Position numbers and translations under genes: made by a program
The notes under the pieces: generated by a model
Seen by the model: the letters and a program-made list of their open reading frames with translations, nothing else
The model's database searches: none
What the model was told of the DNA's origin: nothing
Shown here: positions 33,242-60,149 of the stretch, piece after piece
How the letters are laid out: the number at the start of each line of letters is the position of its first letter
How positions within the stretch are numbered: position 1 is the stretch's first letter
Assembly (NCBI GenBank): GCA_022600195.1
Contig: JAHZKX010000032.1
Span: forward strand, 1-64,000
Reading direction: 5' to 3'
From: Planctomycetota bacterium
Lineage (GTDB): Bacteria > Planctomycetota > Planctomycetia > Planctomycetales > Planctomycetaceae
Length of the DNA: 64,000 bases

Positions 33242-33457
33242 GAATATCTGAAACTTACCGGAAAGTGTTAAGATCAGCGATTTGTATACGATATTATCAA
33301 CGGGAGACCGTAAAAGGGCAGGGTAGATCGCCCTTGTATTGCTTTTTTCTGATTGTACAATTGACTATATATCAAAGGGTCATTGATCGCAATCATTTCT
33401 CTCTTGTCGCAGCTATATGACCATAGTCTGTTTGCCAATCTGAAGGGTTGTCGTAAC

Positions 33458-35116
33458 GTGTTGAGTATCACCATACATCATCACAAACACAAGTTCAGAC
33501 CAACTCCGGCCTATGCCTTTGTTGCATTCGTACTATTGTGCTACTTGGCATGCTTCAATGATTCCCTCATCACCTCCGGCTTTGCCTACGATCAGGCAGA
33601 AAAGCGACTCGCTCATCAGATTGACCAGCTCATCAATCAGGCCAAGAAACGCGAGGGCATAATTTCGACTCAGCGTTCTACTGATGCTGAATTTATGCGA
33701 CGCATTTCACTCGACTTGACCGGAAAAATCCCCCCTGTTGCCGAACTGCGGCTTTTTTTGGCTGATCAAGATCCATTGAAACGCGAAAAGCTGATTGATC
33801 GCCTGTTGGCAAGTCCTGGATTTGTTGTACATTTTACTAACATCTGGCGCGCGATTTTAATTCCAGAAACATCTACTGATCTTCAGACACGTGGTCAGAT
33901 ACCTGAATTTGATGCATGGATGCGGTCCCAGTTGCTGAACAACACGGGCTATGATGAGATTGTCAGGAACATTATTGATGTACCACTTGATATCAATCGA
34001 GGTGGAGAGAGGTCAGAGATTTCACAAGTTTTGACACCGCGTGCGTATTATCTGTCAAAGCAATTAAAACCGGAAAATCTGGCTGCAGGTACTTCACGGG
34101 CATTTTTAGGAGTGAGGATCGAATGTGCCCAATGCCACGATCATCCATTTGATTCCTGGAAACAACATCAGTTTTGGCAATACGCGGCTTTCTTTTCAAA
34201 TCTCGATCAGTCACAACCTGGTACTCCTGGAAATGCACTGCTTGTCAGGGAAGTTACTGGAAAACCACGGATCAAAATTCCTGATACAAATCGCTTAGTG
34301 GAAGCCATATTTCTTGACGGAATTCAACCCGAATGGGTTAATGAACAAACTCGGCCACGACGCCGGCTTTCGCAATGGATCACATCTGCCCAAAATCCTT
34401 ATTTTGCAAAAGCAACCACGAATCGGATTTGGAGTCTTTTTTTTGGTCGGGGTATCATCGATCCCGTCGATGATTTTTCCTCAACCAATCGTGCTTCTCA
34501 CCCAAAACTACTTGAATTATTGGCAATACAATTTCGAGAACATGACTATGATTTAAAATATTTAATCCGTGAAATCACCACTAGCCAGACTTACCAACTT
34601 TCCAGCCGTCAAACAGACTCCAGCCAATCCCAAGTTGAATGGTATGGGAAAATGCCGACTCGTGGTTTAACCGCAGAACAAATCTTTGCAAATCTGGTTC
34701 AGGCAACCGGTTTTTTCCAGCAAACAACCGACGATACTGTTCTTCTGCGTCCGGGGACGAATTCACCTCAGGCAGAAATTTACGAATTATTCAAGTCGGA
34801 GTCGGAAAATCGACTGGATCCCAAGGCAACGATACTCCAGGCACTGTCTCTAATGAATGGTACGTTTATCACAAATGCCACCAGCCTCGAACAATCTGAC
34901 GTTTTTACAGCGATCGTTGACTTTCCAGAACTGAACGACGAGCAGAAAATCGAAGCATTTTTCCTGTCCGCATTGAGTCGTTACCCAACAAAAGATGAAA
35001 TCAATCGTCTGAAAACTGTTATCGCATCAGCAGGTTCAGGCGAAAATCAGATACACGCTTATTCGGATCTTTTTTGGGCTTTGTTAAACAGCAGCGAATT
35101 TTTATTGAATCACTGA
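33458..35116 (+). CDS. DUF1549/DUF1553 planctomycete cytochrome-like protein
   Basis: 552 residues from the GTG at 33458 (AAGGG 10 bases upstream); a TTG at 33383 is the longer choice. An N-terminal membrane anchor/leader (about 18-42) precedes DUF1549 (RRISLDLTGKIPPVAELRLFL, FTNIWRAILIPE) with the CAQCHDHPFDSW motif, C223 and C226 with H227, which is CxxCH, the c-type heme attachment pattern. The second half is DUF1553 (RLSQWITSAQNPYFAKATTNRIWSLFFGRGI, DDFSSTN, LKYLIREITTSQTYQLSS). Function of the family is unknown, though these proteins are planctomycete-specific and exported. It is the first gene of the large operon and ends one base before the EF-hand gene. Confidence 0.93.
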   Translation: MLSITIHHHKHKFRPTPAYAFVAFVLLCYLACFNDSLITSGFAYDQAEKRLAHQIDQLINQAKKREGIISTQRSTDAEFMRRISLDLTGKIPPVAELRLFLADQDPLKREKLIDRLLASPGFVVHFTNIWRAILIPETSTDLQTRGQIPEFDAWMRSQLLNNTGYDEIVRNIIDVPLDINRGGERSEISQVLTPRAYYLSKQLKPENLAAGTSRAFLGVRIECAQCHDHPFDSWKQHQFWQYAAFFSNLDQSQPGTPGNALLVREVTGKPRIKIPDTNRLVEAIFLDGIQPEWVNEQTRPRRRLSQWITSAQNPYFAKATTNRIWSLFFGRGIIDPVDDFSSTNRASHPKLLELLAIQFREHDYDLKYLIREITTSQTYQLSSRQTDSSQSQVEWYGKMPTRGLTAEQIFANLVQATGFFQQTTDDTVLLRPGTNSPQAEIYELFKSESENRLDPKATILQALSLMNGTFITNATSLEQSDVFTAIVDFPELNDEQKIEAFFLSALSRYPTKDEINRLKTVIASAGSGENQIHAYSDLFWALLNSSEFLLNH

Positions 35117-35117
35117 G

Positions 35118-36821
35118 ATGCTAAAAAATGCCATAACAATTTGTAGTCTGCTGCTTGCAGGTATACTGGGATTCAATATGAATACCAGTGTATCAAGGGG
35201 CGAAGTCCAGCCGGTTTCAGTTGAGTCTCAAGATCAATATTCTGTTCAGAGAATGATCCTGCTGGCTCCCTCAGCTCCTTTTGTGATCGAACTCAGCCTG
35301 CTGGTTGACAAAGGTAATTTTCGTGCTACGACGACAGATTACAGTGAACGACTCTTCCGTTCGCTTGATCGTAATCAGGACAAATTTATTGATCTGCAGG
35401 AGATAAAAAATCTGCCTGCCTTTGGATTCAAACGATATGACCAGGGGAATCCCGAACAGCGAATGAAATTACTTGAGATTCCCCCTGCTGATAACCGGTT
35501 GAGTCTTGCGGAATTCGCTGCTTATATTCATCTTGCTCAAGGAACTGCCTTTCGGGTGGCAGGTGCTCCTGCCAGAACATCTCAGGTAATCGAGTTATTT
35601 CGCAAGCTAGATCAGAATGGTGACGGCTCTGTGAGCGATCGGGAATTTCAGGTGAGTTCACAAACACTTTTCAAGTATGACCGCGACGAGGATCAAGTAT
35701 TCAATCTTGCTGAGCTAAGGCCTTTTGGAGCCGTTTCTAACCAGGGTATTGCTCAGCCGGTTCTTCGGCAAACCGTTGAGACTCCTTTTCTTCAATTGGA
35801 TAATGATCGATCACTGACTGCCGCAATTCAGGAATTGTTTAAGAAGTACATTGAATATGCGAATGCAAAAAAGGATGCACTTTCAATAGAGTGTTTTCGA
35901 TCAAAGCAACCTGATGCTGCCAAACTAACTAAATATGACCGTAATCAAGATGGTTTTTTTGATCAGGACGAGCTGTTGGCCTATCTGCATAATCCAGTGG
36001 TGGATATGAATTTGCAGATTGTGCTTCCTCGCACGCAAAATATTCGTCCACAATTAAAACTACTGAAAAAAAACTCGAATCGAATTAGTGAAGTAGAATC
36101 GCGTTCACGATCCAGGTTACAATTACGAGTGGATAGTCTACTTTTTGAAATTCGTGCTAAGAGTTCACGTTATATGTTTGACAATACTGTCTGGTTTTAT
36201 CAGGCCCGCTTTCGTGTTGCCGATAATGACAAGAACGGATATTTAAATCAGTCTGAATTTATGCAGCTGGATTTGCCCAACACCAATTATAAAAAAGTGG
36301 ATCAAAATAAGGATGAGATGTTGACGGTTGAAGAGCTAACCTCTTTTTTAATAAAAGACATAGCTTCTATTCAGAATCAGGTTGTGATGACAGTTGATAA
36401 TGATGGGAAATCACTTTTTGAAATTTTGGATACCAATCGCGACCAGCGACTCAGTCCACGCGAATTGAAAAAAAGCCTGCAGCGGATAAAACAATTCGAT
36501 GGCAATCATGATCAATCATTGGATAGTTCCGAGTTGCGGGGACATTTTAAGTTGACTTTCGAATTGGGAAAACCAAATTTGTTTAAATTCGCTCCACGTA
36601 ATAATTCCATGTCAATGAGACAGACGCGTATGGTGCAAAGGACCGTGGTGGGACCGCGATGGTTTCAACGCATGGACCGCAATCGGGACGAAGATATTTC
36701 ACCCCGGGAATTCTTATTTGATCCATCTATATTTACAAAAATAGATCTTAATCAAGATCAACTAATCAGTCCTGAAGAAGCAGATGCGGTTGAAAAGCAA
36801 AAACAAGCCAATATAAAATAG
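35118..36821 (+). CDS. Secreted protein with ten EF-hand-like calcium loops
   Basis: 567 residues with a signal peptide (to about residue 27). EF-hand loops of the DxNxDxxxxxxE type start at about residues 84, 165, 188, 274, 368, 394, 437, 460, 519 and 542 (for example DRNQDKFIDLQE, DQNGDGSVSDRE, DRNQDGFFDQDE). Between 205 and 260 and between 290 and 365 are helical stretches without loops. No enzymatic domain is seen. Probably a periplasmic calcium-binding protein. It begins one base after the DUF1549 stop. Confidence 0.88.
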   Translation: MLKNAITICSLLLAGILGFNMNTSVSRGEVQPVSVESQDQYSVQRMILLAPSAPFVIELSLLVDKGNFRATTTDYSERLFRSLDRNQDKFIDLQEIKNLPAFGFKRYDQGNPEQRMKLLEIPPADNRLSLAEFAAYIHLAQGTAFRVAGAPARTSQVIELFRKLDQNGDGSVSDREFQVSSQTLFKYDRDEDQVFNLAELRPFGAVSNQGIAQPVLRQTVETPFLQLDNDRSLTAAIQELFKKYIEYANAKKDALSIECFRSKQPDAAKLTKYDRNQDGFFDQDELLAYLHNPVVDMNLQIVLPRTQNIRPQLKLLKKNSNRISEVESRSRSRLQLRVDSLLFEIRAKSSRYMFDNTVWFYQARFRVADNDKNGYLNQSEFMQLDLPNTNYKKVDQNKDEMLTVEELTSFLIKDIASIQNQVVMTVDNDGKSLFEILDTNRDQRLSPRELKKSLQRIKQFDGNHDQSLDSSELRGHFKLTFELGKPNLFKFAPRNNSMSMRQTRMVQRTVVGPRWFQRMDRNRDEDISPREFLFDPSIFTKIDLNQDQLISPEEADAVEKQKQANIK

Positions 36822-36856
36822 TAGAGAATCATCCTGTTCAACGCGGGGAAGACCAA

Positions 36857-38476
36857 ATGGAAAAAATGACTAAGTCAAATCATTTAATAACGCGGGTTCA
36901 ACGTCGTTTGACAGTGGCCTTGTGTGGGCGAAAATTATATGTGTCTTTTGTCTGTAGTGCGGCAGCTTATCTGGCATTGCTGTTAGCGAGCCGATTTACT
37001 GGTTATTACAGAGAATGGTTTCCTCTTGAATCTGTAGGCGTTGTGCTATTGGGAACCGTATTACTTTCCGGTCTTCTGTTTCGAAAGCCAAGTAAAGAAC
37101 AAGCGGCAAGGCTGATTGATCAAAAACAGAAGACGAAAGATCTGTTTTTAACAGTAACCATGCTCGAAAATGCCATGGGCAATTATAAACCTCTGGTTGC
37201 CCTCGATGCGGAAAAGAAAGCAGAGAAGATCAAGCCTGCAAATGTGATCCGATTTGATTGGGCGCGAAGAATCGCCCTTTCCTGCGCAGGAGTTGTAGTG
37301 ATATTTCTAGTGTTACAGTATACGCCTCAGTTTGATCCCTTTGGGGAAGTTCAGGCAGCAAAAATTGAACAGGAGAAATCAAAAGAATTCGAGAAATCCA
37401 AGAAGGCTACAAAAGTTCGATTAGCCGAGCTCAAGAATAAGGATACCGGTGAAGGGGATGAAGAATCCAAAGATGTAAAAAAGGCTGTCGAAAACTTGAA
37501 ATCGGATTTTCGAAAAATGACTCCAGGCAAGAAACTGAAGAACTCAGAAACTCTTGCCGGTCATCAAAAAACAATCGGTGGTAAATGGCGTAAAATTGCC
37601 GAAGAGAAAATGAAAAGTCTGATGATCAAAACCGACCAGTCTCAGAAATTCGGTGGCATGTCAAAAAATGAGGGAATGCAGAAATGGAATAAAGAACTTC
37701 AGGAAGGTTCTACACAGTCTCTTACTAAAGAAATGGATGAATTAAAAGATCAGCTTCAGCGATTAATGAAAGAAACAGATCCTGTAAAACGTGAGCAATT
37801 GAAAAATGAGATCCAGAAAAAAATAAAAGAAATGGAGTCATTTGCGCGCGAAGAAACCAATTCTAAAGCGATGTCTGCTGCACTAAAGCGGGCAATGAAA
37901 CAAATGCAGATGGCAAAAGCGAAAGGACTCAGTTCGGAAGAAGCATTAAAGGAAGCAATGCAGTCAATGGATCTTGCTAAAATGGAATTAAAGGAGATAG
38001 CACAATCCGCTAAAGATATGAAAAAGCTGGAAGAAGCTCTCAAAGTATTACAGATGGCAAAAAAAGCAAATGAGAAATCAGGTTTGGATGGTGAAGCATG
38101 TGAAAATTGTCTGACATTGGAAGATTATGAAGAGCTTTATGCCGATCTGATGGGGGACATGCCCGGTGAGGGCACGGGTGGTGAAGGTCAGGGAGGGGGC
38201 GGCAAAGTCGACGAAGATGACTCATCCAAGACAGGATTTAAAACAGAGAAATCAAAGTCAGCTATTACCGCTGGTAAAGTTCTTCTTTCACTCAAAACCA
38301 AAGGACTCAGCGATAGTGGCGAAGCAAAAAAACAGTTCAGTAGTTTGCTCAAAATTAAACAGGGTATGAGCGAAGCAATTGTTCAAGAGCAAATTCCTCC
38401 AGGCTACCATAAAGGGATTAAAAAGTACTTCAATTCATTAGAGAAACAACCAGCAGAAAAATCATCTAAGAAATGA
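36857..38476 (+). CDS. Membrane protein with long Lys/Glu-rich coiled coil
   Basis: 539 residues. Two N-terminal membrane segments (about 28-45 and 55-74) and one at about 140-158, then a very charged region (160-420) of Lys/Glu/Gln heptads that is a predicted coiled coil, a CENCL motif near 417, a Gly-rich linker (GEGTGGEGQGGGG) and a C-terminal helical domain. The first 90 residues resemble the N-terminus of DUF4175-like proteins that accompany MoxR/VWA operons. Start ATG at 36857 after GGGGAAG. The stop overlaps the next start by 4 bases (ATGA). Function not known. Confidence 0.75.
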   Translation: MEKMTKSNHLITRVQRRLTVALCGRKLYVSFVCSAAAYLALLLASRFTGYYREWFPLESVGVVLLGTVLLSGLLFRKPSKEQAARLIDQKQKTKDLFLTVTMLENAMGNYKPLVALDAEKKAEKIKPANVIRFDWARRIALSCAGVVVIFLVLQYTPQFDPFGEVQAAKIEQEKSKEFEKSKKATKVRLAELKNKDTGEGDEESKDVKKAVENLKSDFRKMTPGKKLKNSETLAGHQKTIGGKWRKIAEEKMKSLMIKTDQSQKFGGMSKNEGMQKWNKELQEGSTQSLTKEMDELKDQLQRLMKETDPVKREQLKNEIQKKIKEMESFAREETNSKAMSAALKRAMKQMQMAKAKGLSSEEALKEAMQSMDLAKMELKEIAQSAKDMKKLEEALKVLQMAKKANEKSGLDGEACENCLTLEDYEELYADLMGDMPGEGTGGEGQGGGGKVDEDDSSKTGFKTEKSKSAITAGKVLLSLKTKGLSDSGEAKKQFSSLLKIKQGMSEAIVQEQIPPGYHKGIKKYFNSLEKQPAEKSSKK

Positions 38477-39516
38477 ATCAGAAAACAAGGGGGCGGCTTT
38501 TTTCCGGATGGTTCATCCTGGTAATGGTAGAACTTGCTGCCATCATCTCCATCGGGATCTTCTTTTTTTATCAGCAGAATGAAGATGCGCTCGTCGTTTA
38601 TTGTGCACATGACGCTGTGTTTTCTGAAGAAATATTGAAGGCATTTGAGCAGAAAACGGGAATCAAAGTTGAACCACGCTTTGATACCGAAGCGACCAAA
38701 TCACTGGGGTTAACTAACCTGATTATTCGTGAGCAAAATCATCCTCGTTGTGATGTTTTCTGGAATAATCAAACTCTGGGCACAGTTGACCTCAAAGAGC
38801 GGGGGTTATTGGAAGCCTATCAAGGGGAGGGTTACAGCAGGATTCCGGATCAATTTAAAGATGTAGAGGGTTATTGGACCGGATTTGCAGCGAGACTCCG
38901 AGTTTACATCACAAATACAGAAAAATTAAATGCTTCGAAAGAGAGTATCGATCAGAAATTGTCAGGGCCTCTGAATGAGGTAGCAATCGCAAAGCCTCTC
39001 TATGGGACAACTTTAACGCATTATACGGTTCTCTGTGATGCATGGGGCCTGGACGAGTTAAAAAAATGGCATCATTCTCTTGAGAAAAGAGAGATCCAGG
39101 AAACATCGGGAAATGCCAGTGTGAAAAATCTGGTCGCCAGCGGTGCCTGTGCATTGGGGTTTACCGATACAGACGATTATTTTGTGGCGGTAGATGAAGA
39201 CAGACCCGTTGCTGTATTGCCTGTGACTGTCGACGGCCGCGTTATTCTAATTCCGAATAGTGTTGCCATTATTAAAGGAACGAAAAAACGTGAACAGGCA
39301 GAGTTGTTAGTGGATTATTTACTTTCAGAAGAAGTAGAACTCAAGCTGGCGCGATCCCAGTCGCGACAAATTCCTTTGGGAAAAGTAGATTGGACACACG
39401 TTCCCGAGACAGTCAGAAAATTTCAAAGATCTATTGAGAATGCCTATCCATTATCAAATCTAGTCATACAGCGAGCGAAAACATTGGCCTGGCTTAAATC
39501 GGAGTATGTGAAATGA
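38473..39516 (+). CDS. ABC transporter substrate-binding protein of the ferric-iron type
   Basis: 347 residues, membrane-anchored by an N-terminal helix (WFILVMVELAAIISIGIFFFY) rather than a lipobox. The rest is a periplasmic binding fold: LVVYCAHDAVFSEEILKAFEQKTGIKVEPRFDTEATKSLGL, then GYWTGFAARLRVYITN and VAVLPVTVDGRVILIPNSVAII. This is the pattern of FbpA/ThiB/AfuA-type proteins (SBP class 6-like), which bind ferric iron, thiamine or small anions. It has no obvious iron-binding Tyr pair that I can assign, so the substrate is open. It overlaps the permease gene by ATGA. Confidence 0.82.
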   Translation: MNQKTRGRLFSGWFILVMVELAAIISIGIFFFYQQNEDALVVYCAHDAVFSEEILKAFEQKTGIKVEPRFDTEATKSLGLTNLIIREQNHPRCDVFWNNQTLGTVDLKERGLLEAYQGEGYSRIPDQFKDVEGYWTGFAARLRVYITNTEKLNASKESIDQKLSGPLNEVAIAKPLYGTTLTHYTVLCDAWGLDELKKWHHSLEKREIQETSGNASVKNLVASGACALGFTDTDDYFVAVDEDRPVAVLPVTVDGRVILIPNSVAIIKGTKKREQAELLVDYLLSEEVELKLARSQSRQIPLGKVDWTHVPETVRKFQRSIENAYPLSNLVIQRAKTLAWLKSEYVK

Positions 39517-40976
39517 GCCTGGCCACAATTTGTGGCGTGACACTGTTGCGCAGTCTGATTATTTCGATTTTGGGAGTTTTATTATCCCGACCTTTGTCAC
39601 ATCTGATTAATGCTGGTCATTCAAAACGTGCTTTTCTGTTACTGATTCTGATCTTGGCTCCTTTTCTGGTTCCGGAATTGATTGTTGGTTATGCATGGTC
39701 TTTGATTTCACTAAAACTGGTACATTACCCTCTATTGATAGAACTGATTTATTCCAGTCTCGTTTTGCTGAAAGTTGTTCCCGTGGGCATTGTCTGCTTT
39801 TATTTTTCTTCTCCGTTCATTTCAACAGAGGCAGATTATATTCGAAAATCAGTCAATTCAAATTCTACACAACTTTCTGATCTGAAAACTCACTGGAGTT
39901 TCTTTCTGTGGAAACATGTGCTGCCGTCTTTACCTGTTGGAGCGTTGTTATTTCTGCTGGCATTTCAGGAATTTGAAATGGCTTCCTTAATTTATCGAGA
40001 TTCATGGATGGTGTGGATTTTTGACGCACAAGCCGGAGGCGTTCCGATTTCTGAAACGGTTTCATTTTTGACAGGACCATTGTTAATCGAGCTAGTAGTT
40101 ATCGTTGGTGTTTTATATTTTTTAAGTCGAATTCGCCTTCAGCCACGATTAGATCAGCTATCCAATGTAAAAAAAACTTCGTTTTCCTCGACTTTGCAGT
40201 CCTGGGGTTATGTTTTGGCTGCTTTTTTGGTGGTCGTTGTGATTCCATTCAGCCTGACTGGCTGGGGTGGTGTGATTTCACTGGGTAGTCTGTTTCAGAA
40301 TCAATTGCAATTGACGGAGACTCTGCGTGAATGTACCTGGGGACTGGTTTATGGTGTCACATCTGCTATCGCAGCCTGGGGAATGGCTGCCTTCTTTTTT
40401 TCGAGAAATCAACCACGTCAACTTAAAATATTAGGCTTTCTGTTTTGTCTACCCGGGCTCTGCGGTTCCCTGACTCTTTCAATCGTCATGGCTAATTTAT
40501 TCTTAACCGAATCCGGACATTGGCTATACGACACTCCTTTGGCATTCTTTATTGCGTTAGTACTTTTTCTTTTTCCCAGAGCCGTCTTTTTAAAGTTAAT
40601 CATTCTTGCGTCTCAGGAAAACGACTCGTTATTTCTAACGAGATTGTTGAGTCGCTCCAAGAATCATACTCAGTCACAGAGTGGAGGGCACCTACATTGG
40701 TCTGTGAACGGGAAAATGCAATATTGGGCCGTTGTCCTGCTGGCTTTCTGGGCCTACTGGGATGTTACGATCAGTTCGATTCTGGCCCCCAACAATACGA
40801 TGACCTCCTCGATTCGATTATACGGTTTAATGCACTATGGGCAGAATTCTGTTCTCTCTGCAATGACTTTTCTCAGTTTTTGCATACCAGTTTTAATCAG
40901 TCTTCTTTTTTTTCCAATCGTAAGAAAACTGTGGATGACTGTTTCAGACCGCTCAACTATGAATGAGACTTTTTAA
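39513..40976 (+). CDS. ABC transporter permease of the FbpB/ThiP type
   Basis: 487 residues with about twelve hydrophobic segments, the double-permease architecture of iron(III) and thiamine importers. The binding-protein-dependent signature is weakly present around the middle of each half (VLPSLPVGALLFLLAFQEFEMASLIYRD and GFLFCLPGLCGSLTLSIV). Located between the binding protein and ATPase genes, with 4-base overlap upstream and 5 bases before the ATPase. Function is transport across the inner membrane; the substrate is unknown. Confidence 0.8.
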   Translation: MSLATICGVTLLRSLIISILGVLLSRPLSHLINAGHSKRAFLLLILILAPFLVPELIVGYAWSLISLKLVHYPLLIELIYSSLVLLKVVPVGIVCFYFSSPFISTEADYIRKSVNSNSTQLSDLKTHWSFFLWKHVLPSLPVGALLFLLAFQEFEMASLIYRDSWMVWIFDAQAGGVPISETVSFLTGPLLIELVVIVGVLYFLSRIRLQPRLDQLSNVKKTSFSSTLQSWGYVLAAFLVVVVIPFSLTGWGGVISLGSLFQNQLQLTETLRECTWGLVYGVTSAIAAWGMAAFFFSRNQPRQLKILGFLFCLPGLCGSLTLSIVMANLFLTESGHWLYDTPLAFFIALVLFLFPRAVFLKLIILASQENDSLFLTRLLSRSKNHTQSQSGGHLHWSVNGKMQYWAVVLLAFWAYWDVTISSILAPNNTMTSSIRLYGLMHYGQNSVLSAMTFLSFCIPVLISLLFFPIVRKLWMTVSDRSTMNETF

Positions 40977-40981
40977 ATATA

Positions 40982-45888: not shown

Positions 45889-45917
45889 CAGGACTTTTAT
45901 TCTGCGGAGATATCAAG

Positions 45918-46934: not shown

Positions 46935-46940
46935 ACAGCG

Positions 46941-49726: not shown

Positions 49727-49749
49727 AAGTTGAAAGAAAGACTGGGTTT

Positions 49750-51921: not shown

Positions 51922-51965
51922 ACTAACTCTTCTAAGACTCTAAAATGAAAAGATGACAGATTCTG

Positions 51966-52913
51966 ATGAGCACACAACCTCCAATGGTGGAAGTAAAAAA
52001 TCTGTGGGTACGTTACGGAAAATATGAAGCCGTCAAAGGCATTTCTTTTTCGATACCCAAGGGTGAAGTATTCGGTTTTATCGGCCCAAATGGGGCTGGA
52101 AAATCTTCCACGATCAAAGTTCTGGCAACGTTACAACGGGAATATCAATGTGACACGGTCAAGATAAATGGTATTTCATTGAACAAAGCCCCTCACCTGA
52201 TCAGAGAAATAATCGGTTATATGCCTGATTTTTTTGGTGTTTACGAAGATTTAACCGCACGGGAATATCTACATTTTTTTGCAGCCGCTTATCGTATTGA
52301 TCGCAAGAAACGAAAAGCCATTGTGAACGATGTCTTAGAGTTAACAGATTTAACCGGAAAAATTGATGCGCCTGTTGATTCGTTGTCCCGAGGTATGAAA
52401 CAACGATTGGCACTGGCACGTGTCCTGTTACATGATCCTGATTTGTTATTACTCGATGAGCCTGCCAGCGGTCTGGATCCCCGCGCCCGAATAGAAGTTC
52501 GCGAGCTATTGGTTGCGTTAAAGGAAATGGGGAAAACGATTATTATCTCCAGTCATATTCTTCACGAACTGTCACAACTTTGTACCAGTATCGGAATCAT
52601 TGAAGCGGGTGAATTTGTCACACAGGGATCTCTCGATCACATCTATAAGCGTCTGGAACTCAGTCGCGTTGTTCATGTCCAGATTGTCGGTGAAATGAAT
52701 GGAGTTTGTGAAAACATCGAAGCAATGCCAGGTGTGAAATCAGTTACTGTTCAGGCAGATCGCCTGGCGATTCAGCTGCAGGAAGATCAGTTGGCTGTTG
52801 AAGATTTACATGCAAAACTTGCTGCTACAGGTGTAAAAATTCGGATGTTTCAGGCGGAAGCCATGGACATGGAAACGGTGTTCATGAAACTGACGGAAGG
52901 GAAAACCGCATGA
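51966..52913 (+). CDS. ABC-2 type ATPase, copy A
   Basis: 315 residues. Walker A GPNGAGKSS (about 39-47), Q-loop region GYMPDFFGVYEDLTAREYLHFF, signature SLSRGMKQRLALARVL, Walker B LLLLDEPASGLDPRA and the switch His (SSHILHEL). The C-terminal 90 residues are a dimer/regulatory domain typical of ABC-2 exporters. Followed by its permease with a 4-base overlap (ATGA). Related to the ATPase at 56666. Confidence 0.95.
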   Translation: MSTQPPMVEVKNLWVRYGKYEAVKGISFSIPKGEVFGFIGPNGAGKSSTIKVLATLQREYQCDTVKINGISLNKAPHLIREIIGYMPDFFGVYEDLTAREYLHFFAAAYRIDRKKRKAIVNDVLELTDLTGKIDAPVDSLSRGMKQRLALARVLLHDPDLLLLDEPASGLDPRARIEVRELLVALKEMGKTIIISSHILHELSQLCTSIGIIEAGEFVTQGSLDHIYKRLELSRVVHVQIVGEMNGVCENIEAMPGVKSVTVQADRLAIQLQEDQLAVEDLHAKLAATGVKIRMFQAEAMDMETVFMKLTEGKTA

Positions 52914-54781
52914 AATTGAGACGATTTCAAATCAGTTTGCCCTTGCTGAGCAAAGAATTAACCGAGATGGCTAATCGTCGACGGACTTATATTATCCGCA
53001 CAATTTATGCACTGCTGTTTCTGGGATGTATCGGTTATATTAGTCTCGACCAGGTATCCGGCCTTCAAAATAATCCATTGGCGATACTTGGTCGCGGGCG
53101 TCAAATATTTGAATCAATGATCTATTTACAATTCACCGCGATCTATTTATTCCTGCCAGCAATCACCTGTAGCGTGATAACACAGGAAAAAGAACACAAT
53201 AGCCTGGGGCTCTTATTAATTACGCGATTGAGTCCTTCCACGATCATCCTGGAAAAGTACCTGGGACGATTGATCACCATGGTTACATTTCTGATGCTGG
53301 GACTTCCGATTTTAGCATTTGCTTATTCATTGGGGGGCGTCTCACCGGCCATGTTTATTAATGGACTCTGGTTGCTGGTGCTCACGATGTTCCAGGTGGC
53401 AGCGCTTGGTGTATTGTGCTCAAGTTTCTTTCGCACGACCGTATCGGCATTTATTGCCTCATATGTATTTGGTTTTTTAATGTTGTTCGGACCAGTTATT
53501 TCTTATGAATTGAATCTGTTCTTTTTTGGCGATTTTCTGAAAATGATAACTGATCAAGTACGAGACATGCCGCTTTGGTCGAATTATATTTCTGCAAGGA
53601 GAGGCGATCTGAGCCTTCTGTTATTTGCCCCCTATTGGTTTGATCGATTATCCGGGGGAGGGGGAATTGGTTCGATTGGTAGAACATTTCTCATCAGTAT
53701 CCCGATTTTATTGAGCACATTTGTGTTTCTGATTTTCTCGCACTACTTTCTGGTGCGTCGTGCTTTTCTTCCTTCGCGAAATTATTTATTGAATCTCTTC
53801 AAATCATTAGACAGCATTTTTTCTAAAATCAATCATAACCGGGTTACACGCGGAATCGTTCTCGTAAAAGAACAGATTCAACTTCCAGAAAACAGGCCGA
53901 TTGCCTGGCGTGAAACATCAAAAAAATCTCTGGGAACTGTCCGCTATCTATTTCGAATTTTGATAGCGCTCGAAGTCCCCGTACTTTTCCTGTGTTTATT
54001 TATTGCATCCAGTAGCCCTGCAGCCATTGTTCCAGGTGCGGTCATGTTACTCTGGTTCATCTGGGGGCTGGTAGTATTGCTGTTGGCGGTTTCCGCAACC
54101 AGTCTGATCTCCGGTGAACGCTCTCATGAAACATTGGATGTTTTACTGACAGCACCAATATCCGGAACCGACATTCTAACGCAGAAAATTGCTGGTGTGC
54201 GACGTTTATCTATGGCTTTATTAGTTCCTTTGCTGACAATTGTGTTATTTGAAGCCTGGTGGAAATGGGAGTACGCCCAGATCAATCCAAACAATCGCAA
54301 TCCATATGAATTACAGTGGCTGCCTTATTTGATTGGATCACTACTTACCATTGGGATTTATCTACCGATGTTAACCTGGCTTTTTTGCTGGATCGGCATG
54401 AAAGTAAAATCACAAACGAAAGCAATTCTTTCTGCATTGGGTGTGATTGTTCTCTGGTGTATTCTTCCATTCATTTTAATGTTCCCGGTTTTAATACTGA
54501 ATCCTTCATTTAATGAAGAGTCAGTCATTTATGGTTTATTTCTCAGTCCCGCATCGTATATCGTAATTAATGAAATAGCCGAATTTCATGAGTTTGGTAC
54601 TACCTGGGGTCCTTTAATGATTAATTCTTTCATTTACGGTGGCTGTTATTTACTGTTCCGTTATCAGTGTCATATGCATATCGATAAAAATCTTGGTCGT
54701 TTAGACAGCAAGGGGAATTTTATAGACCGATCGACGCTGTTCCCTTCAGGTAAACAATCTCTTTTGAGTTCAGATCAATGA
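52910..54781 (+). CDS. ABC-2 type permease, copy A
   Basis: 623 residues with about twelve hydrophobic segments in two halves, resembling ABC-2 family membrane proteins that partner the preceding ATPase. The first half contains TYIIRTIYALLFLGCIGYI, SVITQEKEHNSLGLLLITRLSPSTIILEKYL and a Gly-rich loop; the second begins ETSKKSLGTVRYLF and has SLISGERSHETLDVLLTAPISGTDILTQKI. So two ABC-2 type units appear to be fused in one chain. Substrate unknown. It overlaps the next gene by 4 bases. Confidence 0.9.
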   Translation: MKLRRFQISLPLLSKELTEMANRRRTYIIRTIYALLFLGCIGYISLDQVSGLQNNPLAILGRGRQIFESMIYLQFTAIYLFLPAITCSVITQEKEHNSLGLLLITRLSPSTIILEKYLGRLITMVTFLMLGLPILAFAYSLGGVSPAMFINGLWLLVLTMFQVAALGVLCSSFFRTTVSAFIASYVFGFLMLFGPVISYELNLFFFGDFLKMITDQVRDMPLWSNYISARRGDLSLLLFAPYWFDRLSGGGGIGSIGRTFLISIPILLSTFVFLIFSHYFLVRRAFLPSRNYLLNLFKSLDSIFSKINHNRVTRGIVLVKEQIQLPENRPIAWRETSKKSLGTVRYLFRILIALEVPVLFLCLFIASSSPAAIVPGAVMLLWFIWGLVVLLLAVSATSLISGERSHETLDVLLTAPISGTDILTQKIAGVRRLSMALLVPLLTIVLFEAWWKWEYAQINPNNRNPYELQWLPYLIGSLLTIGIYLPMLTWLFCWIGMKVKSQTKAILSALGVIVLWCILPFILMFPVLILNPSFNEESVIYGLFLSPASYIVINEIAEFHEFGTTWGPLMINSFIYGGCYLLFRYQCHMHIDKNLGRLDSKGNFIDRSTLFPSGKQSLLSSDQ

Positions 54782-56673
54782 AATATCTGTTTAATACGAT
54801 GAAATCCACAAGCATATCTTGTCGGCAAATGTTGCTAACCGGCTGTGCCGGAATGCTGCTTCTTTTACCAGGTACTATTTATGCCATGGATATTGAAGAA
54901 GCCATCTGGGGATTTAATAATCAACGTCCGACAGGGCAATGTATTCCACTTTCTCTATTATTGAGCAATAATACTCCCGAATCATTTGATGAACTGGTTC
55001 AATTGAATCGTCTGCAGTTCAACGGCACCAAAGTTGGCGCTCCACTCTACCGCAGGGTGTTCCTTGCTCCTTACACATCTCAATGGGTGCAGTTTTACCC
55101 CTATATTATTAATAATGAGCAGCAGGAAAACTGGTCCCTTAGCTGGGGGCCTGGTAATCTTTACAGCCGTCGTATCAACAAGCCTGGTAGAAACTCTGAT
55201 AACACTGAGAATGAAGCTGCGAATAAATCGCGTATTATTCTCGTTGATCGAAATGCTCTATCGCAAGGTGGAAGTCATTTTAAAACGTTCCTTGATGAAC
55301 TGTTCCCCCCGTCTGTCACTGCAACGGATTCTTTGGATGAAATAATTCTGGACCACGTCCCACGTTGGGATGCAGCACGCAGAAATTCATTTATGGATTG
55401 GCTCTATCGCGGTGGAATATTGCATCTGCTTCCCGATGCATCTGACGCGAACTTGAAGTTTACGACGAACATGTCTGCGCTTAATGCACCTTTTGATCAC
55501 TTCCGTATTGGTGCTGGGTTAATTATTCGTCATTCCGGTCAACTTAAAGAGTTGGATAAAAAACAATTATTGTCAAGAAAACAGGAAGTTCAAAGTGCCG
55601 AGTTATCTGCTGTTGGTGCTACTGTCCCCACTCCTGAAACAACTAAAAAAGCACCAAAAACTTACAATAACGGTGTAATCGATAATTTTAATTCCTATTT
55701 ACTTTATCAGCTTTCAGAACTGACACACCCTGACCATAACTGGTCGATGATATATTTAATGACAGGAGCGTATTTGCTTATGATATTTCCTGGCTGCTAC
55801 TTTTTTCATAAGAAACAAAAGGGTTATCGTAATTCATTGCTCTTTATTCTAATGACAGTCGCACTTTTCAGTACCATGTTTTGGAGTGTTGGCAAACGTG
55901 GCTATGGTGAAACAACAACACTGAATAGTTTGATCATTGCACGTCCACTGAGTGGCGATCATTATGATTTAACTTATTGCGTCAATGCTTTTGTTACCGA
56001 TGGTGCTGACTATCAGTTTACAGGAAAGGGCGAAGGCGCCATCTACACAACGGCTCAAGAAATTGAAAAAGTTAAGGGGGCAATCATGAATGGCGTTGAT
56101 GGAAGTTTTCATGCGGATATTCCTCCCTTTTCTGCCCGCAGTTTCATGTGTCGTATTAAAGCAACCTATCCGAAACCTGTCATGAAAGTTCTCGAGTATC
56201 AGATCGATAAAAAATCAAGATTAAAAACGCTGAAAATCAAGTTAAACTCAGCATTACCAAAGAATACATCGATCAGTCAAGTTCTCTATAATCGTGTTTT
56301 ATACGATCTAAAACAGACCCGGGAGAAAGATGCCTTTATTCTGGAATTGGGAAATCACTCAACGCCACTTACAGCATGGAAATCCATATTAGAATCAGAT
56401 TCAAGATATAATCGACGATTTGGGTATCGCGATGAAGAAACAGATACTCCCAAAGTCTATGCCAGTTTGTATAAACGACTGGTCATGAAAAATTTGAATC
56501 TAGTTCGACCGGGTCAACTCAGGACTTACAATAACGATCTATCACGTATCAAACTTTTCTTTTACTGTGATATTCCTGATGAATTTAAATTGAAGACGAA
56601 TGTCAATGGATTACAACAAGGACGTACACTGTTTGTAAATAAGATTGCATTACTCAATAATATGAATGACTAG
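54778..56673 (+). CDS. Secreted/membrane protein, copy B of the GATase-like family
   Basis: 631 residues. Signal peptide (LLLLPGTIYAMD) and a large exported head with the GATase-like segment (DEIILDHVPRWDAARRNSFMDWLYRGGILHLLPDA), then membrane helices at about 322-342 and 350-370 (AYLLMIFPGCYFFHKKQ, SLLFILMTVALFSTMFWSV), matching the layout of the 49750 protein. The C-terminal part is exported. Starts within the permease gene (ATGA) and ends 8 bases inside the next ATPase gene. Function unknown; probably an accessory subunit of the ABC-2 exporter. Confidence 0.75.
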   Translation: MKYLFNTMKSTSISCRQMLLTGCAGMLLLLPGTIYAMDIEEAIWGFNNQRPTGQCIPLSLLLSNNTPESFDELVQLNRLQFNGTKVGAPLYRRVFLAPYTSQWVQFYPYIINNEQQENWSLSWGPGNLYSRRINKPGRNSDNTENEAANKSRIILVDRNALSQGGSHFKTFLDELFPPSVTATDSLDEIILDHVPRWDAARRNSFMDWLYRGGILHLLPDASDANLKFTTNMSALNAPFDHFRIGAGLIIRHSGQLKELDKKQLLSRKQEVQSAELSAVGATVPTPETTKKAPKTYNNGVIDNFNSYLLYQLSELTHPDHNWSMIYLMTGAYLLMIFPGCYFFHKKQKGYRNSLLFILMTVALFSTMFWSVGKRGYGETTTLNSLIIARPLSGDHYDLTYCVNAFVTDGADYQFTGKGEGAIYTTAQEIEKVKGAIMNGVDGSFHADIPPFSARSFMCRIKATYPKPVMKVLEYQIDKKSRLKTLKIKLNSALPKNTSISQVLYNRVLYDLKQTREKDAFILELGNHSTPLTAWKSILESDSRYNRRFGYRDEETDTPKVYASLYKRLVMKNLNLVRPGQLRTYNNDLSRIKLFFYCDIPDEFKLKTNVNGLQQGRTLFVNKIALLNNMND

Positions 56674-57655
56674 CAAAATGAATGAATTGCTTTCTGATAC
56701 GCCGATATTCGATGATAACCCTGTAATTGATATAAAAAATGTGTCACACGCCTTTAAGGGCCACCGGGCGCTGCAAGGGATCAGTTTTCAGGTTCATCCG
56801 CAATCTTTGCATGGGTTTGTTGGTCCTAATGGTGCAGGTAAGACGACCACTTTAAAAATAATATGCACCTTGTTGCGACCCCAGGCTGGAAAAATCGAAG
56901 TATTTGGGAATAACGTGCTAACCGGCGTTAAAGAGATTCGTAAACGAATTGGATTTATGCCCGACCACTTCAGTACCTATCGTCAAATGACCGTTTTTGA
57001 GTATCTGGATTTCTTCGGCGCAGCATATGGTCTGGGAGTGGAACAACGTGATCAGGTTATCAATGATGTGCTGACGCTGACTGATATGGATGGTCGTAAG
57101 GATTCGCTGATTAGTGGATTGTCGCGTGGTATGCAGCAACGCGTTAGTTTGGCCCGCGTTTTAGTCAATGACCCTGATTTATTATTGCTTGACGAGCCTG
57201 CTTCCGGCCTAGACCCACGCGCACGAATTGAGCTGATGGAAATACTTCAAGAATTAAAACGCATGGGGAAAACCATTTTTATCAGTTCGCATATTCTGAG
57301 TGAGCTGGCAGAACTTTGTGACAGCGTGACGATCATTGATCGCGGATTAATAAAATATAGTGGTACGATGGATGGGTTATTAACACACGAACAAGAGCAT
57401 CCCACTTATAAGATTGTATTAGCGTCAGAAGTGGAAGGGCTTGTAGAATCGCTGGCGAACGAATCGGGAGTTCTTAATGTAGAAAAAACAGAAAAAGCTC
57501 GAGAATTACGCGTTTCTTTTGATGCAACGACAACAAACACCAGTAAGCTATTATCAAAAATCATAAATCTGCAAGGAGTAATAGAGTCATTCCAAAAAGA
57601 TAAGAAGCATCTGAATCAGGCATTCCTGGATTTAACCGAACAGGGAGTGCGTTAA
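56666..57655 (+). CDS. ABC-2 type ATPase, copy B
   Basis: 329 residues. Walker A GPNGAGKTT, signature GLSRGMQQRVSLARVL, Walker B LLLLDEPASGLDPRA and the switch His in SSHILSEL. It differs from copy A in the N-terminal ~20 residues and in the C-terminal half but keeps the core in the same order (for example FMPDHFSTYRQMTVFEYLDFFGAAYG against YMPDFFGVYEDLTAREYLHFFAAAYR). The ATG at 56666 overlaps the preceding stop by 8 bases. The final A overlaps the permease start. Confidence 0.95.
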   Translation: MTSKMNELLSDTPIFDDNPVIDIKNVSHAFKGHRALQGISFQVHPQSLHGFVGPNGAGKTTTLKIICTLLRPQAGKIEVFGNNVLTGVKEIRKRIGFMPDHFSTYRQMTVFEYLDFFGAAYGLGVEQRDQVINDVLTLTDMDGRKDSLISGLSRGMQQRVSLARVLVNDPDLLLLDEPASGLDPRARIELMEILQELKRMGKTIFISSHILSELAELCDSVTIIDRGLIKYSGTMDGLLTHEQEHPTYKIVLASEVEGLVESLANESGVLNVEKTEKARELRVSFDATTTNTSKLLSKIINLQGVIESFQKDKKHLNQAFLDLTEQGVR

Positions 57656-59208
57656 TGTTTCAAGGAATGTTTGCACTTTTTCATCGGGCATTAAATGTCG
57701 ATTTCCGTTTGACACGGACGCATTTGTTTCGATTCCTGTTCGCAGTGATGATCCTGTTTAGTTTAATGATGGCGCATACAACCAGTCGATTTATGGCTGC
57801 TGCAGGGCTGGTTTTTTTTACGCAAATCATCTATCTCAACTTTGTCTTTATTATCATGGCAGGTATCAGTTTTTTTGCCACGGCAATCACAGAGGAAAAA
57901 GAAGAACAAACGATCGGTTTGCTCTTGATGGCGGGGGTGAATCCCATCTCTCTCTTACTGGGAAAATCACTGCCTCGGTTGGTTTCTGCCCTCTTGCTGC
58001 TATCAGTCCAGTTCCCCTTCACATTACTGGCGATTACATTAGGTGGCGTTACATTCTCTCAAGTGATTTCTGCCTATATTGCATTAGCCGTTTTTTTGTT
58101 TTTTCTGTCAAACCTGGGTTTGATTTGTTCCGTCGTGTGTGCGCGATCTCGCTCTGCATCCACGCTTGTTGTTCTTTCACTCGCGTTTTATTTTTTTGGA
58201 ATTCCACTGCTTAAATGGATTTTGTTAGTGATGGTGCAACAGGGGTGGATCTCCGCTGGTTCCATAATTAACTTTTACCCCAAACTTATATTGGACTGGC
58301 TTAGTCAGTTTTCTGTATTGAGTCAAATTAATAGGATCCTTATTTCCGGTTTTAGTGAATCTCCCTGGAACATGCAGTTTTGGGGCAATCTGATTATGGG
58401 AATCATTTTGTTCTTCTTTGCGTGTTTACTTTTCAACCGGTTTGCTCTGACGGAAATCTCTACAAGTCCCGGGCGTGGTTTAATCGCAAAAAAGAAAAGT
58501 CATTACTTTTCACCGGGCCGTTCATGGTCGAATGCATTAATATGGAAAGATTATTTCTTTCTCAATGGTGGCTATGGAATGGCGGTGATCAAATTATGCT
58601 GCTATGGGATTGCCTTAATGGCATTATGTATTTTTGTTGCGTATCTATCACGCAGCTATTCAAGGGAAGAATTTGCCCTGACTGTATTCTGGACGATGCT
58701 CGTTGTACTTATTATCGAGATTAGTCTGATCTCAGCCCGTGTCTTTCATGTTGAGGTCCAGTGGAACACGATGGTATCCACTGCAATGCTGCCTCAATCG
58801 ATGTCAAAAACAGCATACTCTAAAGTCATCGGATGCCTGCTCAGTTTAGTCCCGGTATGTTTTTATCTGTCGATTGGTTTTGTCCTCTGTATCGATGAGA
58901 TGCTGTACGATCTCGGAATGGTTCTGTCAGAACCGGGGTTTTGGATGATGTTTATTGAAGTCCTTTTTTTCTGGCATTTAACGGCACTTTTATCGACATA
59001 CATCAAGTGGGGGGCTTTGCCACTGGCATTCGTGCTCATGTGGGTTGGCAATATGTTTTTCTTTTTTTCGGCCAGCCTTATCACACTGGGCGGGGGAGCA
59101 AGAGCCATCGAATCGCTCTATATCGTATTTACTCTAGCGATGTTTGTCGGTATCGTAGTATCACACTTCGTCATCAAGGAACGTTTAATTCAACTTGCAT
59201 CTCGATAG
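57655..59208 (+). CDS. ABC-2 type permease, copy B
   Basis: 517 residues, about twelve hydrophobic segments. The early segment AITEEKEEQTIGLLLMAGVNPISLLLGKSLPRLV parallels SVITQEKEHNSLGLLLITRLSPSTIILEKYLGRLI in copy A, so the two permeases are paralogous at least in their first halves. It is shorter than copy A. Starts by a one-base overlap with the ATPase stop (TAATG). The gene ends 38 bases before the Tat-exported isomerase. Confidence 0.9.
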   Translation: MFQGMFALFHRALNVDFRLTRTHLFRFLFAVMILFSLMMAHTTSRFMAAAGLVFFTQIIYLNFVFIIMAGISFFATAITEEKEEQTIGLLLMAGVNPISLLLGKSLPRLVSALLLLSVQFPFTLLAITLGGVTFSQVISAYIALAVFLFFLSNLGLICSVVCARSRSASTLVVLSLAFYFFGIPLLKWILLVMVQQGWISAGSIINFYPKLILDWLSQFSVLSQINRILISGFSESPWNMQFWGNLIMGIILFFFACLLFNRFALTEISTSPGRGLIAKKKSHYFSPGRSWSNALIWKDYFFLNGGYGMAVIKLCCYGIALMALCIFVAYLSRSYSREEFALTVFWTMLVVLIIEISLISARVFHVEVQWNTMVSTAMLPQSMSKTAYSKVIGCLLSLVPVCFYLSIGFVLCIDEMLYDLGMVLSEPGFWMMFIEVLFFWHLTALLSTYIKWGALPLAFVLMWVGNMFFFFSASLITLGGGARAIESLYIVFTLAMFVGIVVSHFVIKERLIQLASR

Positions 59209-59246
59209 ACTACTTACAGAAAAAGGTCCATAGAAAAGATATTATT

Positions 59247-60149
59247 ATGAATTCAGAAATCAGTCGAAGAAAATTATTGCAAAATTCTGGAGTGATGGCG
59301 GCCACGGCCCTGGGGTTAGGGGGACAGCAGGCTTATGCGGGAAAAAGAAATCAGACTATTTGTCAGCAGCCCCTCAAAGGTGACATTAATCAATCAGTCG
59401 TACACTGGTGTTTTAAAAAATATTGGGACATCGAACAAACGGCGCAAGTGGCATCGCAGCTTGGGATGAAGAGTGTTGAACTGACGCCTCCCGAAAACTG
59501 GGGGACTCTCAAGAAGTATGGATTAACCTGTGCGATCGCATCCAGTCACGGATTCAAAGTGGGGTTTAATAACCCCAAGCATTGGGATCAATGTATTGAA
59601 ATTCTGCGGAAAAGGATTGACGACTGTGCTGCTGGGGGAGTCAAAAATGTAATCACATTCACTGGAATGCGAGATGGGATTAGCGATGAAGCAGGGGCCA
59701 AAAACTGTGTAGCAGGGTTCAAAAAAATTGTAGGGTATGCAGAGAAGAAAAAAGTGAATCTCTGTCTGGAAATGTTAAATTCCCGGGACGACAGCCACCC
59801 CATGAAAGGTCATCCCGGTTACCAGGGTGACAACACCGAATATTGTATCGATATAATCAAGCAGGTTGGTTCCGACCGCATGAAATTATTATTTGATATT
59901 TATCATGTGCAAATAATGGATGGCGATGTGATACGCCGCATTCGAGAACATAAAGACTATATTGGTCATGTTCATACGGCCGGAAATCCGGGTAGAGGCG
60001 AATTGGACCAAAAGCAGGAAATCAACTATCCTCCGATCATGCAGGCATTACTGGATATTGGCTATCAGGGTCATGTAGGGCAGGAGTTCATCCCCACAAT
60101 CGACCCCTATCAGGGGTTGAAGCAGGCAGTTGAACTTTGTGACGTCTAG
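59247..60149 (+). CDS. Tat-exported hydroxypyruvate isomerase-like TIM-barrel protein
   Basis: 300 residues. The N-terminus carries a Tat motif (SRRKLLQ) and a hydrophobic stretch ending about residue 31, so the folded protein should be exported. The body is a xylose-isomerase-like TIM barrel: VHWCFKKYWDIEQTAQVASQLGMKSVEL, LCLEMLNSRDD, LLFDIYHVQIM, IGHVHTAGNPGRGELD and GQEFIPT, where the conserved metal-binding Glu/Asp/His/Glu set of hydroxypyruvate isomerase (Hyi) sits. The ATG at 59247 is chosen; a longer frame reaches back into the permease gene and would bury the Tat signal. The substrate is unproven. Confidence 0.9.
   Translation: MNSEISRRKLLQNSGVMAATALGLGGQQAYAGKRNQTICQQPLKGDINQSVVHWCFKKYWDIEQTAQVASQLGMKSVELTPPENWGTLKKYGLTCAIASSHGFKVGFNNPKHWDQCIEILRKRIDDCAAGGVKNVITFTGMRDGISDEAGAKNCVAGFKKIVGYAEKKKVNLCLEMLNSRDDSHPMKGHPGYQGDNTEYCIDIIKQVGSDRMKLLFDIYHVQIMDGDVIRRIREHKDYIGHVHTAGNPGRGELDQKQEINYPPIMQALLDIGYQGHVGQEFIPTIDPYQGLKQAVELCDV

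What the first reader, a model, noticed from the sequence alone, without database searches (positions are those of the whole stretch)
33458..60149. 27-kb co-oriented operon combining MoxR/VWA chaperones, two ABC-2 exporters, an iron-type ABC importer, calcium loops and a heme-motif protein
Seen directly: sixteen genes on one strand, nearly all separated by under 50 bases or overlapping by ATGA. Known families: MoxR-DUF58-BatA sets assemble or activate VWA proteins; ABC-2 pumps with GATase-like accessory proteins recall the Gld-type exporters; DUF1549 proteins carry a CxxCH motif. I know of no described system combining these with an iron-type importer and an EF-hand protein. Inference: an envelope-assembly or export system specific to planctomycetes.
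Basis: partly seen in the sequence, partly recalled or inferred. Interest (0 to 1): 0.75.

Follow-up and report, generated by a model that had tools for sequence, protein, structure and literature searches.

The report
Iron-type importer fused to lipoprotein propeller
In this bacterium and many relatives, the engine of a nutrient importer and a lipoprotein-like propeller protein are encoded as one chain with a lipid-anchor signal in its middle, beside a conserved but poorly understood envelope-maintenance gene set.

Summary
The block is real: 17 genes (not 16) on one strand, gaps of 44 bases or less, five 4-base overlaps. It is a mosaic. The conserved core is g3-g11 (36857-51921): coiled-coil membrane protein, FbpA-type binding protein, FbpB-type permease, ABC ATPase, VWA/GATase, MoxR, DUF58, BatA and one unassigned membrane protein. 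The ABC-2 exporters follow only in part of the genera; the heme-motif, EF-hand and isomerase-like genes are more local.

The ATPase (40982-42844) is fused in frame to an NHL beta-propeller. The join is a lipoprotein-type signal whose Cys is invariant in 51 of 51 fused and 23 of 23 separate propellers. Fused and separate states change at least 12 times on a 74-row tree. Permease, propeller and VWA protein are all present in 110 and all absent in 32 of 150 genomes of the order. The same gene order occurs in Verrucomicrobiota and Lentisphaerota contigs, so it is not planctomycete-specific.

I infer that Lgt/LspA cut the fused chain into a membrane-tailed ATPase and a periplasmic lipoprotein, linking a non-ferric FbpABC-type importer to a Bat/Cmd-like envelope machine. 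Cleavage, substrate and function are untested.

The parts
33383..35116 (+). g1 PSCyt2/PSD1 (DUF1549/DUF1553) protein with CAQCH motif; not part of the conserved core
35118..36821 (+). g2 EF-hand repeat protein; upstream of g3 in 10 of 24 mapped genomes
36857..38476 (+). g3 membrane protein, three N-terminal hydrophobic segments, then a long charged helical-looking stretch; no Pfam or NCBIfam family over cut-off
38473..39516 (+). g4 FbpA-type solute-binding protein; the Tyr pair of ferric relatives is replaced by invariant Asp234-Asp235
39513..40976 (+). g5 FbpB-type permease; no sequence-family match; best fold match T. thermophilus FbpB (9j4r_A)
40982..41944 (+). g6 N-terminal part: FbpC/MalK-type ABC ATPase with C-terminal beta domain; Q-loop Gln not conserved
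41945..41986 (+). g6 junction: short hydrophobic stretch ending in Gly-Cys (residues 334-335), a mid-chain lipobox
41984..42844 (+). g6 C-terminal part: NHL beta-propeller starting at the lipobox Cys
42841..45888 (+). g7 membrane VWA/GATase1-like protein; D116, S118, S120, T179, D205 (MIDAS-type residues, recalled motif) invariant in 30 rows
45918..46934 (+). g8 MoxR AAA+ ATPase
46941..47846 (+). g9 DUF58 protein
47834..49726 (+). g10 BatA-type VWA membrane protein
49684..51921 (+). g11 membrane protein of no known family (likely ATG start about 49747)
51966..59208 (+). g12-g16 two ABC-2 type transporter sets (ATPase, permease, accessory g14, ATPase, permease); present after g11 in part of the genera
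59247..60149 (+). g17 AP_endonuc_2 (xylose-isomerase-like) protein; among mapped genomes only in the congeners

Best explanation
Shown: a conserved gene core (g3-g11) joins an FbpABC-type ABC importer to a VWA/GATase-MoxR-DUF58-BatA set, and the importer's ATPase is encoded in frame with a lipoprotein-type NHL propeller. Shown: in other families of the same class a separate lipoprotein-type propeller gene lies close upstream of the VWA/MoxR set without the importer (5 of 10 loci mapped). Inferred: the chain enters the membrane with the ATPase inside; Lgt lipidates the mid-chain Cys and LspA cuts before it. The products are an ATPase with a membrane tail, held at the permease, and a periplasmic lipoprotein propeller, made 1:1. 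Inferred: MoxR and DUF58 act from the cytosol through the membrane VWA proteins (g7, g10) on the propeller, as MoxR-VWA sets are thought to do in metal or cofactor maturation and envelope upkeep. The binding protein and importer handle the ligand involved, probably not ferric iron since the Tyr ligands are replaced by Asp.
For: Propeller reading frame of 600 aa or more in 67 of 109 order genomes, under 450 aa in 41, one between (frame length is a proxy for fusion; the window's genome and three fragments left out). Cys invariant 51 of 51 fused and 23 of 23 separate, Gly before it in 70 of 74. Net positive charge before the hydrophobic run in 47 of 51 fused; uncharged run median 13, short for a membrane span but normal for a lipoprotein signal (recalled). 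At least 12 fused/separate changes on the tree. No positionally conserved in-frame start: ATG in 13 of 39 fused genes tested. Permease, propeller and g7 all present in 110, all absent in 32, partial in 8 of 150. 74 of 75 genomes with g5 and g7 on one contig have them co-oriented within 12 kb, in 28 genera. Lipoprotein propeller upstream of g7 without importer in 5 of 10 outgroup loci. Folds.
Against: No direct evidence of cleavage, lipidation, substrate or function. The importer and g7 lie far apart in G024 (one contig) and on different contigs in 37 of 112 genomes; how many of these are truly apart is unknown. In Verrucomicrobiota g7 lies within 9.5 kb of g4 in only 4 of 10 loci with room. 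Of 45 Planctomycetota loci with room, 9 show no propeller downstream of g4. The Q-loop Gln is present in only 7 of 29, so transport coupling is uncertain. Only 5 of 10 outgroup loci show a propeller near g7.
Confidence: 0.45

Rival explanations
1. The fused protein stays whole: the hydrophobic stretch is a signal anchor and the propeller is a permanent periplasmic cap of the importer, the lipid on Cys being an extra anchor.
For: In-frame fusion is kept in many genera.
Against: Repeated fused/separate change implies that permanent linkage is not needed. The hydrophobic run is short (median 13) and follows the last strand of the ATPase's C-terminal domain directly in the model.
Confidence: 0.25
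2. The propeller is also translated from internal starts, so the fusion is only overlapping translation.
For: Some in-frame ATG, GTG or TTG lies 13-28 codons before the Cys in 34 of 39 fused genes tested.
Against: Positions differ between genes, 5 of 39 have none, and ATG is present in only 13 of 39.
Confidence: 0.1
3. An ordinary FbpABC-like nutrient importer that merely shares a gene string with a Bat-type cluster; no functional link.
For: g7 and importer lie apart in some genomes, and 6 of 10 Verrucomicrobiota loci with room show no g7 within 9.5 kb. Outside the family the class has g7 relatives but no g5 match was found.
Against: All-or-none presence in 142 of 150 genomes of the order, and fusion of the importer ATPase to a propeller that elsewhere precedes g7 as its own gene.
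Confidence: 0.15
4. One reading: one 16-gene planctomycete-specific envelope-assembly or export system.
For: Tight co-oriented genes in this genus.
Against: The block splits into differently conserved units and the core is found in other phyla.
Confidence: 0.05

Closest known systems
Bat / cmdABCD operons (MoxR, DUF58, VWA/BatA proteins) of Bacteroides, spirochetes, Rhizobium
   Same: MoxR + DUF58 + BatA-type VWA + further VWA protein close together; periplasmic VWA topology shown for BB0173 (PMC5700661, passages)
   Different: No importer or lipoprotein propeller described in those passages; no BatD or TPR match here
mxa (mox) operon of methylotrophs
   Same: Pairs a periplasmic-binding-protein-like MxaJ with MxaR and MxaS and methanol dehydrogenase (PMC9728263, passages). 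That MxaR is a MoxR, MxaS a DUF58 protein and the dehydrogenase a propeller is recalled.
   Different: No permease or ATPase (recalled); no methanol dehydrogenase match in g1-g17
FbpABC ferric importer
   Same: Fold of permease (9j4r_A) and ATPase (9j4r_B); sequence profile of the binding protein
   Different: Fe-ligand Tyr pair replaced by Asp-Asp; Q-loop Gln not conserved; ATPase fused to a lipoprotein
Beta-propeller MoxR-vWA ternary conflict systems (Kaur et al. 2020, PMC7159879, passages)
   Same: MoxR, vWA and propeller together; g8 also passes the cut-off of the derived Pfam model PF20030
   Different: There the propeller is fused to the vWA protein; here it is fused to an ABC ATPase or separate, and an importer is present

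Membership tests
FbpABC ferric-iron importer | FbpA-type binding protein with the Tyr-Tyr iron ligands | tested here: not met
   Profile matches FbpA-type chains (best 7w3w_A, 6.3e-21), but their Tyr pair aligns to Asp234-Asp235, invariant in 24 of 24 rows. That these Tyr bind iron is recalled.
FbpABC ferric-iron importer | FbpB-type permease fold | tested here: met
   Foldseek best match 9j4r_A, E 1.5e-7, TM 0.61, 14% identity, the only match at E<=0.001; no sequence match to PDB permeases.
FbpABC ferric-iron importer | ATPase with canonical Walker A, signature, Walker B, H-loop and Q-loop | tested here: inconclusive
   G49, K50, S137, G139, D160, E161 and H194 invariant in 29 rows; Q-loop position P 11, Q 7, H 6, A 5.
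Bat/Cmd operon | MoxR, DUF58 and BatA/VWA genes adjacent | tested here: met
   Pfam AAA_3, DUF58, BatA + VWA_2, VWA + GATase1_like.
Bat/Cmd operon | BatD and TPR (BatC/E) proteins | tested here: not met
   No such Pfam match among the 17 genes at E<=0.01.
Bat/Cmd operon | Envelope or oxidative-stress role | not testable with these tools
   Reported for mutants elsewhere (PMC5700661 and PMC11834572, passages).
Lipoprotein (propeller part of g6) | Lipobox Cys after a charged n-region and hydrophobic run | tested here: met
   Cys 74 of 74, Gly before it 70 of 74; net positive 47 of 51 fused. The position is mid-chain, unlike any lipoprotein I recall.
Lipoprotein (propeller part of g6) | Lipidation and LspA cleavage | not testable with these tools
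   Needs mass spectrometry or globomycin.
mxa operon | Methanol dehydrogenase subunits in the operon | tested here: not met
   No PQQ-enzyme match in g1-g17 at E<=0.01.
Beta-propeller MoxR-vWA ternary system (Kaur et al.) | vWA component with C-terminal propeller | tested here: not met
   g7 and g10 carry no propeller match; the propeller is on the ABC ATPase.
Gld-type ABC-2 exporter | GldG-type accessory protein | tested here: not met
   g11 and g14 match no Pfam family at E<=5; no structure was predicted for them.

The most novel reading that the evidence does not exclude
Bacteria of several phyla make an ABC-importer ATPase and a periplasmic lipoprotein as one polyprotein with a signal-peptidase-II site in mid-chain. 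Processing leaves the ATPase with a membrane tail and delivers a propeller that a MoxR-VWA machine loads with the imported ligand: a coupled import-and-maturation device.
Probability: 0.35. Interest if true: 0.8.

Novelty: new variant of a known kind. Interest (0 to 1): 0.55.

Why it matters
MoxR-VWA clusters are widespread and mostly without a known client or ligand (recalled). A cluster whose VWA protein comes all-or-none with an importer and a lipoprotein propeller offers a concrete candidate client (the propeller) and a route of supply (the importer). A mid-chain lipobox joining a cytosolic ATPase to a periplasmic protein would be an unusual protein-processing route. A protein blot with and without globomycin would settle it.

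Tried and rejected
Permease-ATPase-propeller triple fusions (1111 aa ORFs in G030 and G022) were rejected: the extra N-terminal stretch is a wrong-frame extension (seen in the alignment, for G030 also). A DUF4175 identity for g3 was considered from memory; no Pfam or NCBIfam model supports it. An amidating-lyase-like active site in the propeller was considered by eye from memory and dropped; the PDB match is weak (3fvz, 4.8e-07). A GldG-like identity for g11/g14 found no support. A first lipobox regex missed cases (found in 39 of 49 fused and 8 of 14 separate, with 11 more rows without an anchor) and was replaced by an alignment count. The start-codon count used only the 39 fused genes whose lipobox that regex found. 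In the maps the g12 profile had drifted to ATPase-propeller proteins, so g12 labels beside ATP there often mean the propeller. Long antisense ORFs hide some genes in GC-rich genomes, so absences there are upper bounds. One search stopped with a script error after printing the g4-g7 lists and nine g10 rows; I used what was printed.

In the counts, g5 means E<=0.001, g7 means ortholog-level hits of about 50% identity or more picked by eye, propeller means E<1e-50 plus one shorter fragment (G127). All 8 partial cases are assemblies of 310 contigs or more. Genomes mapped were chosen from the g5 and g11 hits and are not a random sample; one search is the broader figure. The tree is a quick one with 26 of 71 inner branches open.

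Literature: searches returned no paper. Of I saw the listings only (10 to 12 rows at most) and then passages of PMC7159879, PMC9728263, PMC5700661 and PMC11834572. No paper was read whole. Most subscription papers are not held, so 'undescribed' is limited to these searches.

Full report
OBSERVATION. The window lies on contig C55 of an 84-contig, 6.58-Mb genome; the closest named matches to its g4 and g6 are Gimesia. Between 33383 and 60149 there are 17 ORFs on the + strand with gaps of 44 bases or less and five 4-base overlaps. g5, g11 and g14 have no Pfam match even at E<=5; g3 has only sub-threshold ones. No listed terminator-like site lies in an inter-gene gap. Two promoter-like sites lie just before g3 and g7, though promoter-like sites are fewer than in shuffles.

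WHAT WAS MISSED. g6 (40982-42844, 620 aa) is an ABC ATPase (residues 1 to about 321) followed in frame by an NHL beta-propeller (335-620). The join is a short hydrophobic run ending Gly334-Cys335. AlphaFold2 with 29 sequences gives mean pLDDT 88.2: ATPase with a C-terminal beta domain, a short helix at 325-332, a join at 331-338 with pLDDT under 50, then the propeller. Foldseek finds NHL propellers (Thin, TRIM71; TM 0.82-0.86 by target) and MalK/GlcV/FbpC-type ATPases, among them FbpC of the T. thermophilus ferric importer, 9j4r_B. g5, without a sequence match, folds like an FbpB-type permease: 9j4r_A, E 1.5e-7, TM 0.61. g4 matches FbpA-type chains, but their tyrosine pair aligns to Asp234-Asp235. 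These two and Cys44, Asp47, Asp71, Glu73, Trp97, Asn98 and Asn99 are invariant in 24 of 24 rows, the window included. The ATPase keeps Walker A, signature, Walker B and H-loop residues, but the Q-loop Gln is present in only 7 of 29.

THE MID-CHAIN LIPOBOX. In 74 distinct propeller proteins (51 fused, 23 separate) the Cys is invariant, and Gly precedes it in 70. The fused forms have a net positive stretch before the hydrophobic run in 47 of 51; the uncharged run before the Cys has median 13 (range 3-19) in fused and 14 (12-26) in separate forms. A tree of the propeller domains, with the join left out, needs at least 12 changes between fused and separate (quick method, 26 of 71 inner branches open). 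Some 'separate' calls are single genomes and could be sequencing errors, but three groups of two to five rows are consistently separate. In-frame start codons before the join are not at a conserved place. An invariant lipidation-type Cys in both arrangements, and repeated change between them, fit post-translational cutting better than a permanent tether. This is inference.

CONSERVATION. Over 150 genomes of the order (55 genera), permease, propeller and g7 are all present in 110, all absent in 32 and partial in 8; the 8 are all assemblies of 310 contigs or more. Where g5 and g7 share a contig they are co-oriented within 12 kb in 74 of 75 genomes from 28 genera; in 37 of 112 they are on different contigs. 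The propeller's frame is 600 aa or more in 67 of 109 and under 450 in 41. In 24 non-window genomes mapped contiguously (chosen, not random), g13-type exporter genes follow g11 in 17, g2 precedes g3 in 10 and g17 is in 3. A g5 profile found 42 of 198 class genomes, the window's own included, all in its family (at most 7 candidates per genome were scored). g7 relatives, paralogues included, are in 128 of 158 class genomes. In 10 outgroup loci mapped around the best g7 relative, a separate lipoprotein-type propeller gene precedes it in 5: directly in 3, with one to three called ORFs between in 2. In these five at least one of MoxR, DUF58 and BatA follows. So the propeller-VWA-MoxR set may be older and the importer recruited to it, or lost in those families; the root is not proved.

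OTHER PHYLA. Where the flank is long enough, g5 follows in 52 of 53 Planctomycetota and 13 of 13 Verrucomicrobiota, the propeller in 36 of 45 and 10 of 11, g7 in 30 of 36 and 4 of 10, MoxR in 27 of 35 and 3 of 10. Fused ATPase-propeller genes occur in Chthoniobacter flavus Ellin428, a Lentisphaerae MAG and a complete planctomycete genome (L110, L093, L149). A protein search with the join and propeller region gave 2496 matches; 107 of the 120 listed carry both ABC_tran and NHL domains, counted by eye. In 245 genomes of the phylum, 140 have a g4-profile match at E<=1e-50. Of these, 18 score 429 bits or more and the other 122 clearly less (best E 2.3e-95), a second SBP family.

FUNCTION. Defects in Bat/Cmd-type clusters (MoxR, DUF58, VWA) have been reported to change envelope, morphology and stress resistance, and BB0173's VWA faces the periplasm (PMC5700661, PMC11834572; passages). 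The mxa operon pairs a binding-protein-like MxaJ with MxaR, MxaS and methanol dehydrogenase (PMC9728263, passages; the calcium-loading role of its MoxR-VWA genes is recalled). By analogy I propose that g7-g10 act on the propeller lipoprotein and that the importer handles a ligand tied to it. The ligand is open; the acidic conserved residues suggest a divalent metal or an organic cation.

VERDICT. A real, widely conserved variant of the MoxR-VWA gene set, carrying a fused ATPase-lipoprotein; I found no description of it in the searches made. The anatomy is well supported; the mechanism is inference.

Noticed in passing
window:41962-41989: Two overlapping terminator-like hairpins fall on the ATPase-propeller join; conservation not checked.
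   Followed up: no
G049 (L031), G073 (L035) and G105:C58: A second, diverged g7 copy lies directly after g7: a tandem duplication of the VWA/GATase gene.
   Followed up: no
L159:14185-20850 and L134:13146-19872: In two verrucomicrobial loci without a g7 match, proteins of over 2200 aa with lamin-tail and other surface-type domains (CotH in L159) follow the importer-propeller genes.
   Followed up: partly
L157:13360-14343: The separate propeller here starts with a twin-arginine-like lipoprotein signal (SRRRFL...AGC).
   Followed up: no
G000: The genome has 11 AAA_3 (MoxR) matches, 10 of them strong, so this MoxR is one of many paralogues.
   Followed up: no
window:28513-32859: Next to the block, on the other strand, is a 1448-aa protein with PQQ-type propeller and malectin domains.
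   Followed up: no
genomes: A second SBP family, scoring below the strict g4 relatives, is common across the phylum; its neighbours were not examined.
   Followed up: no
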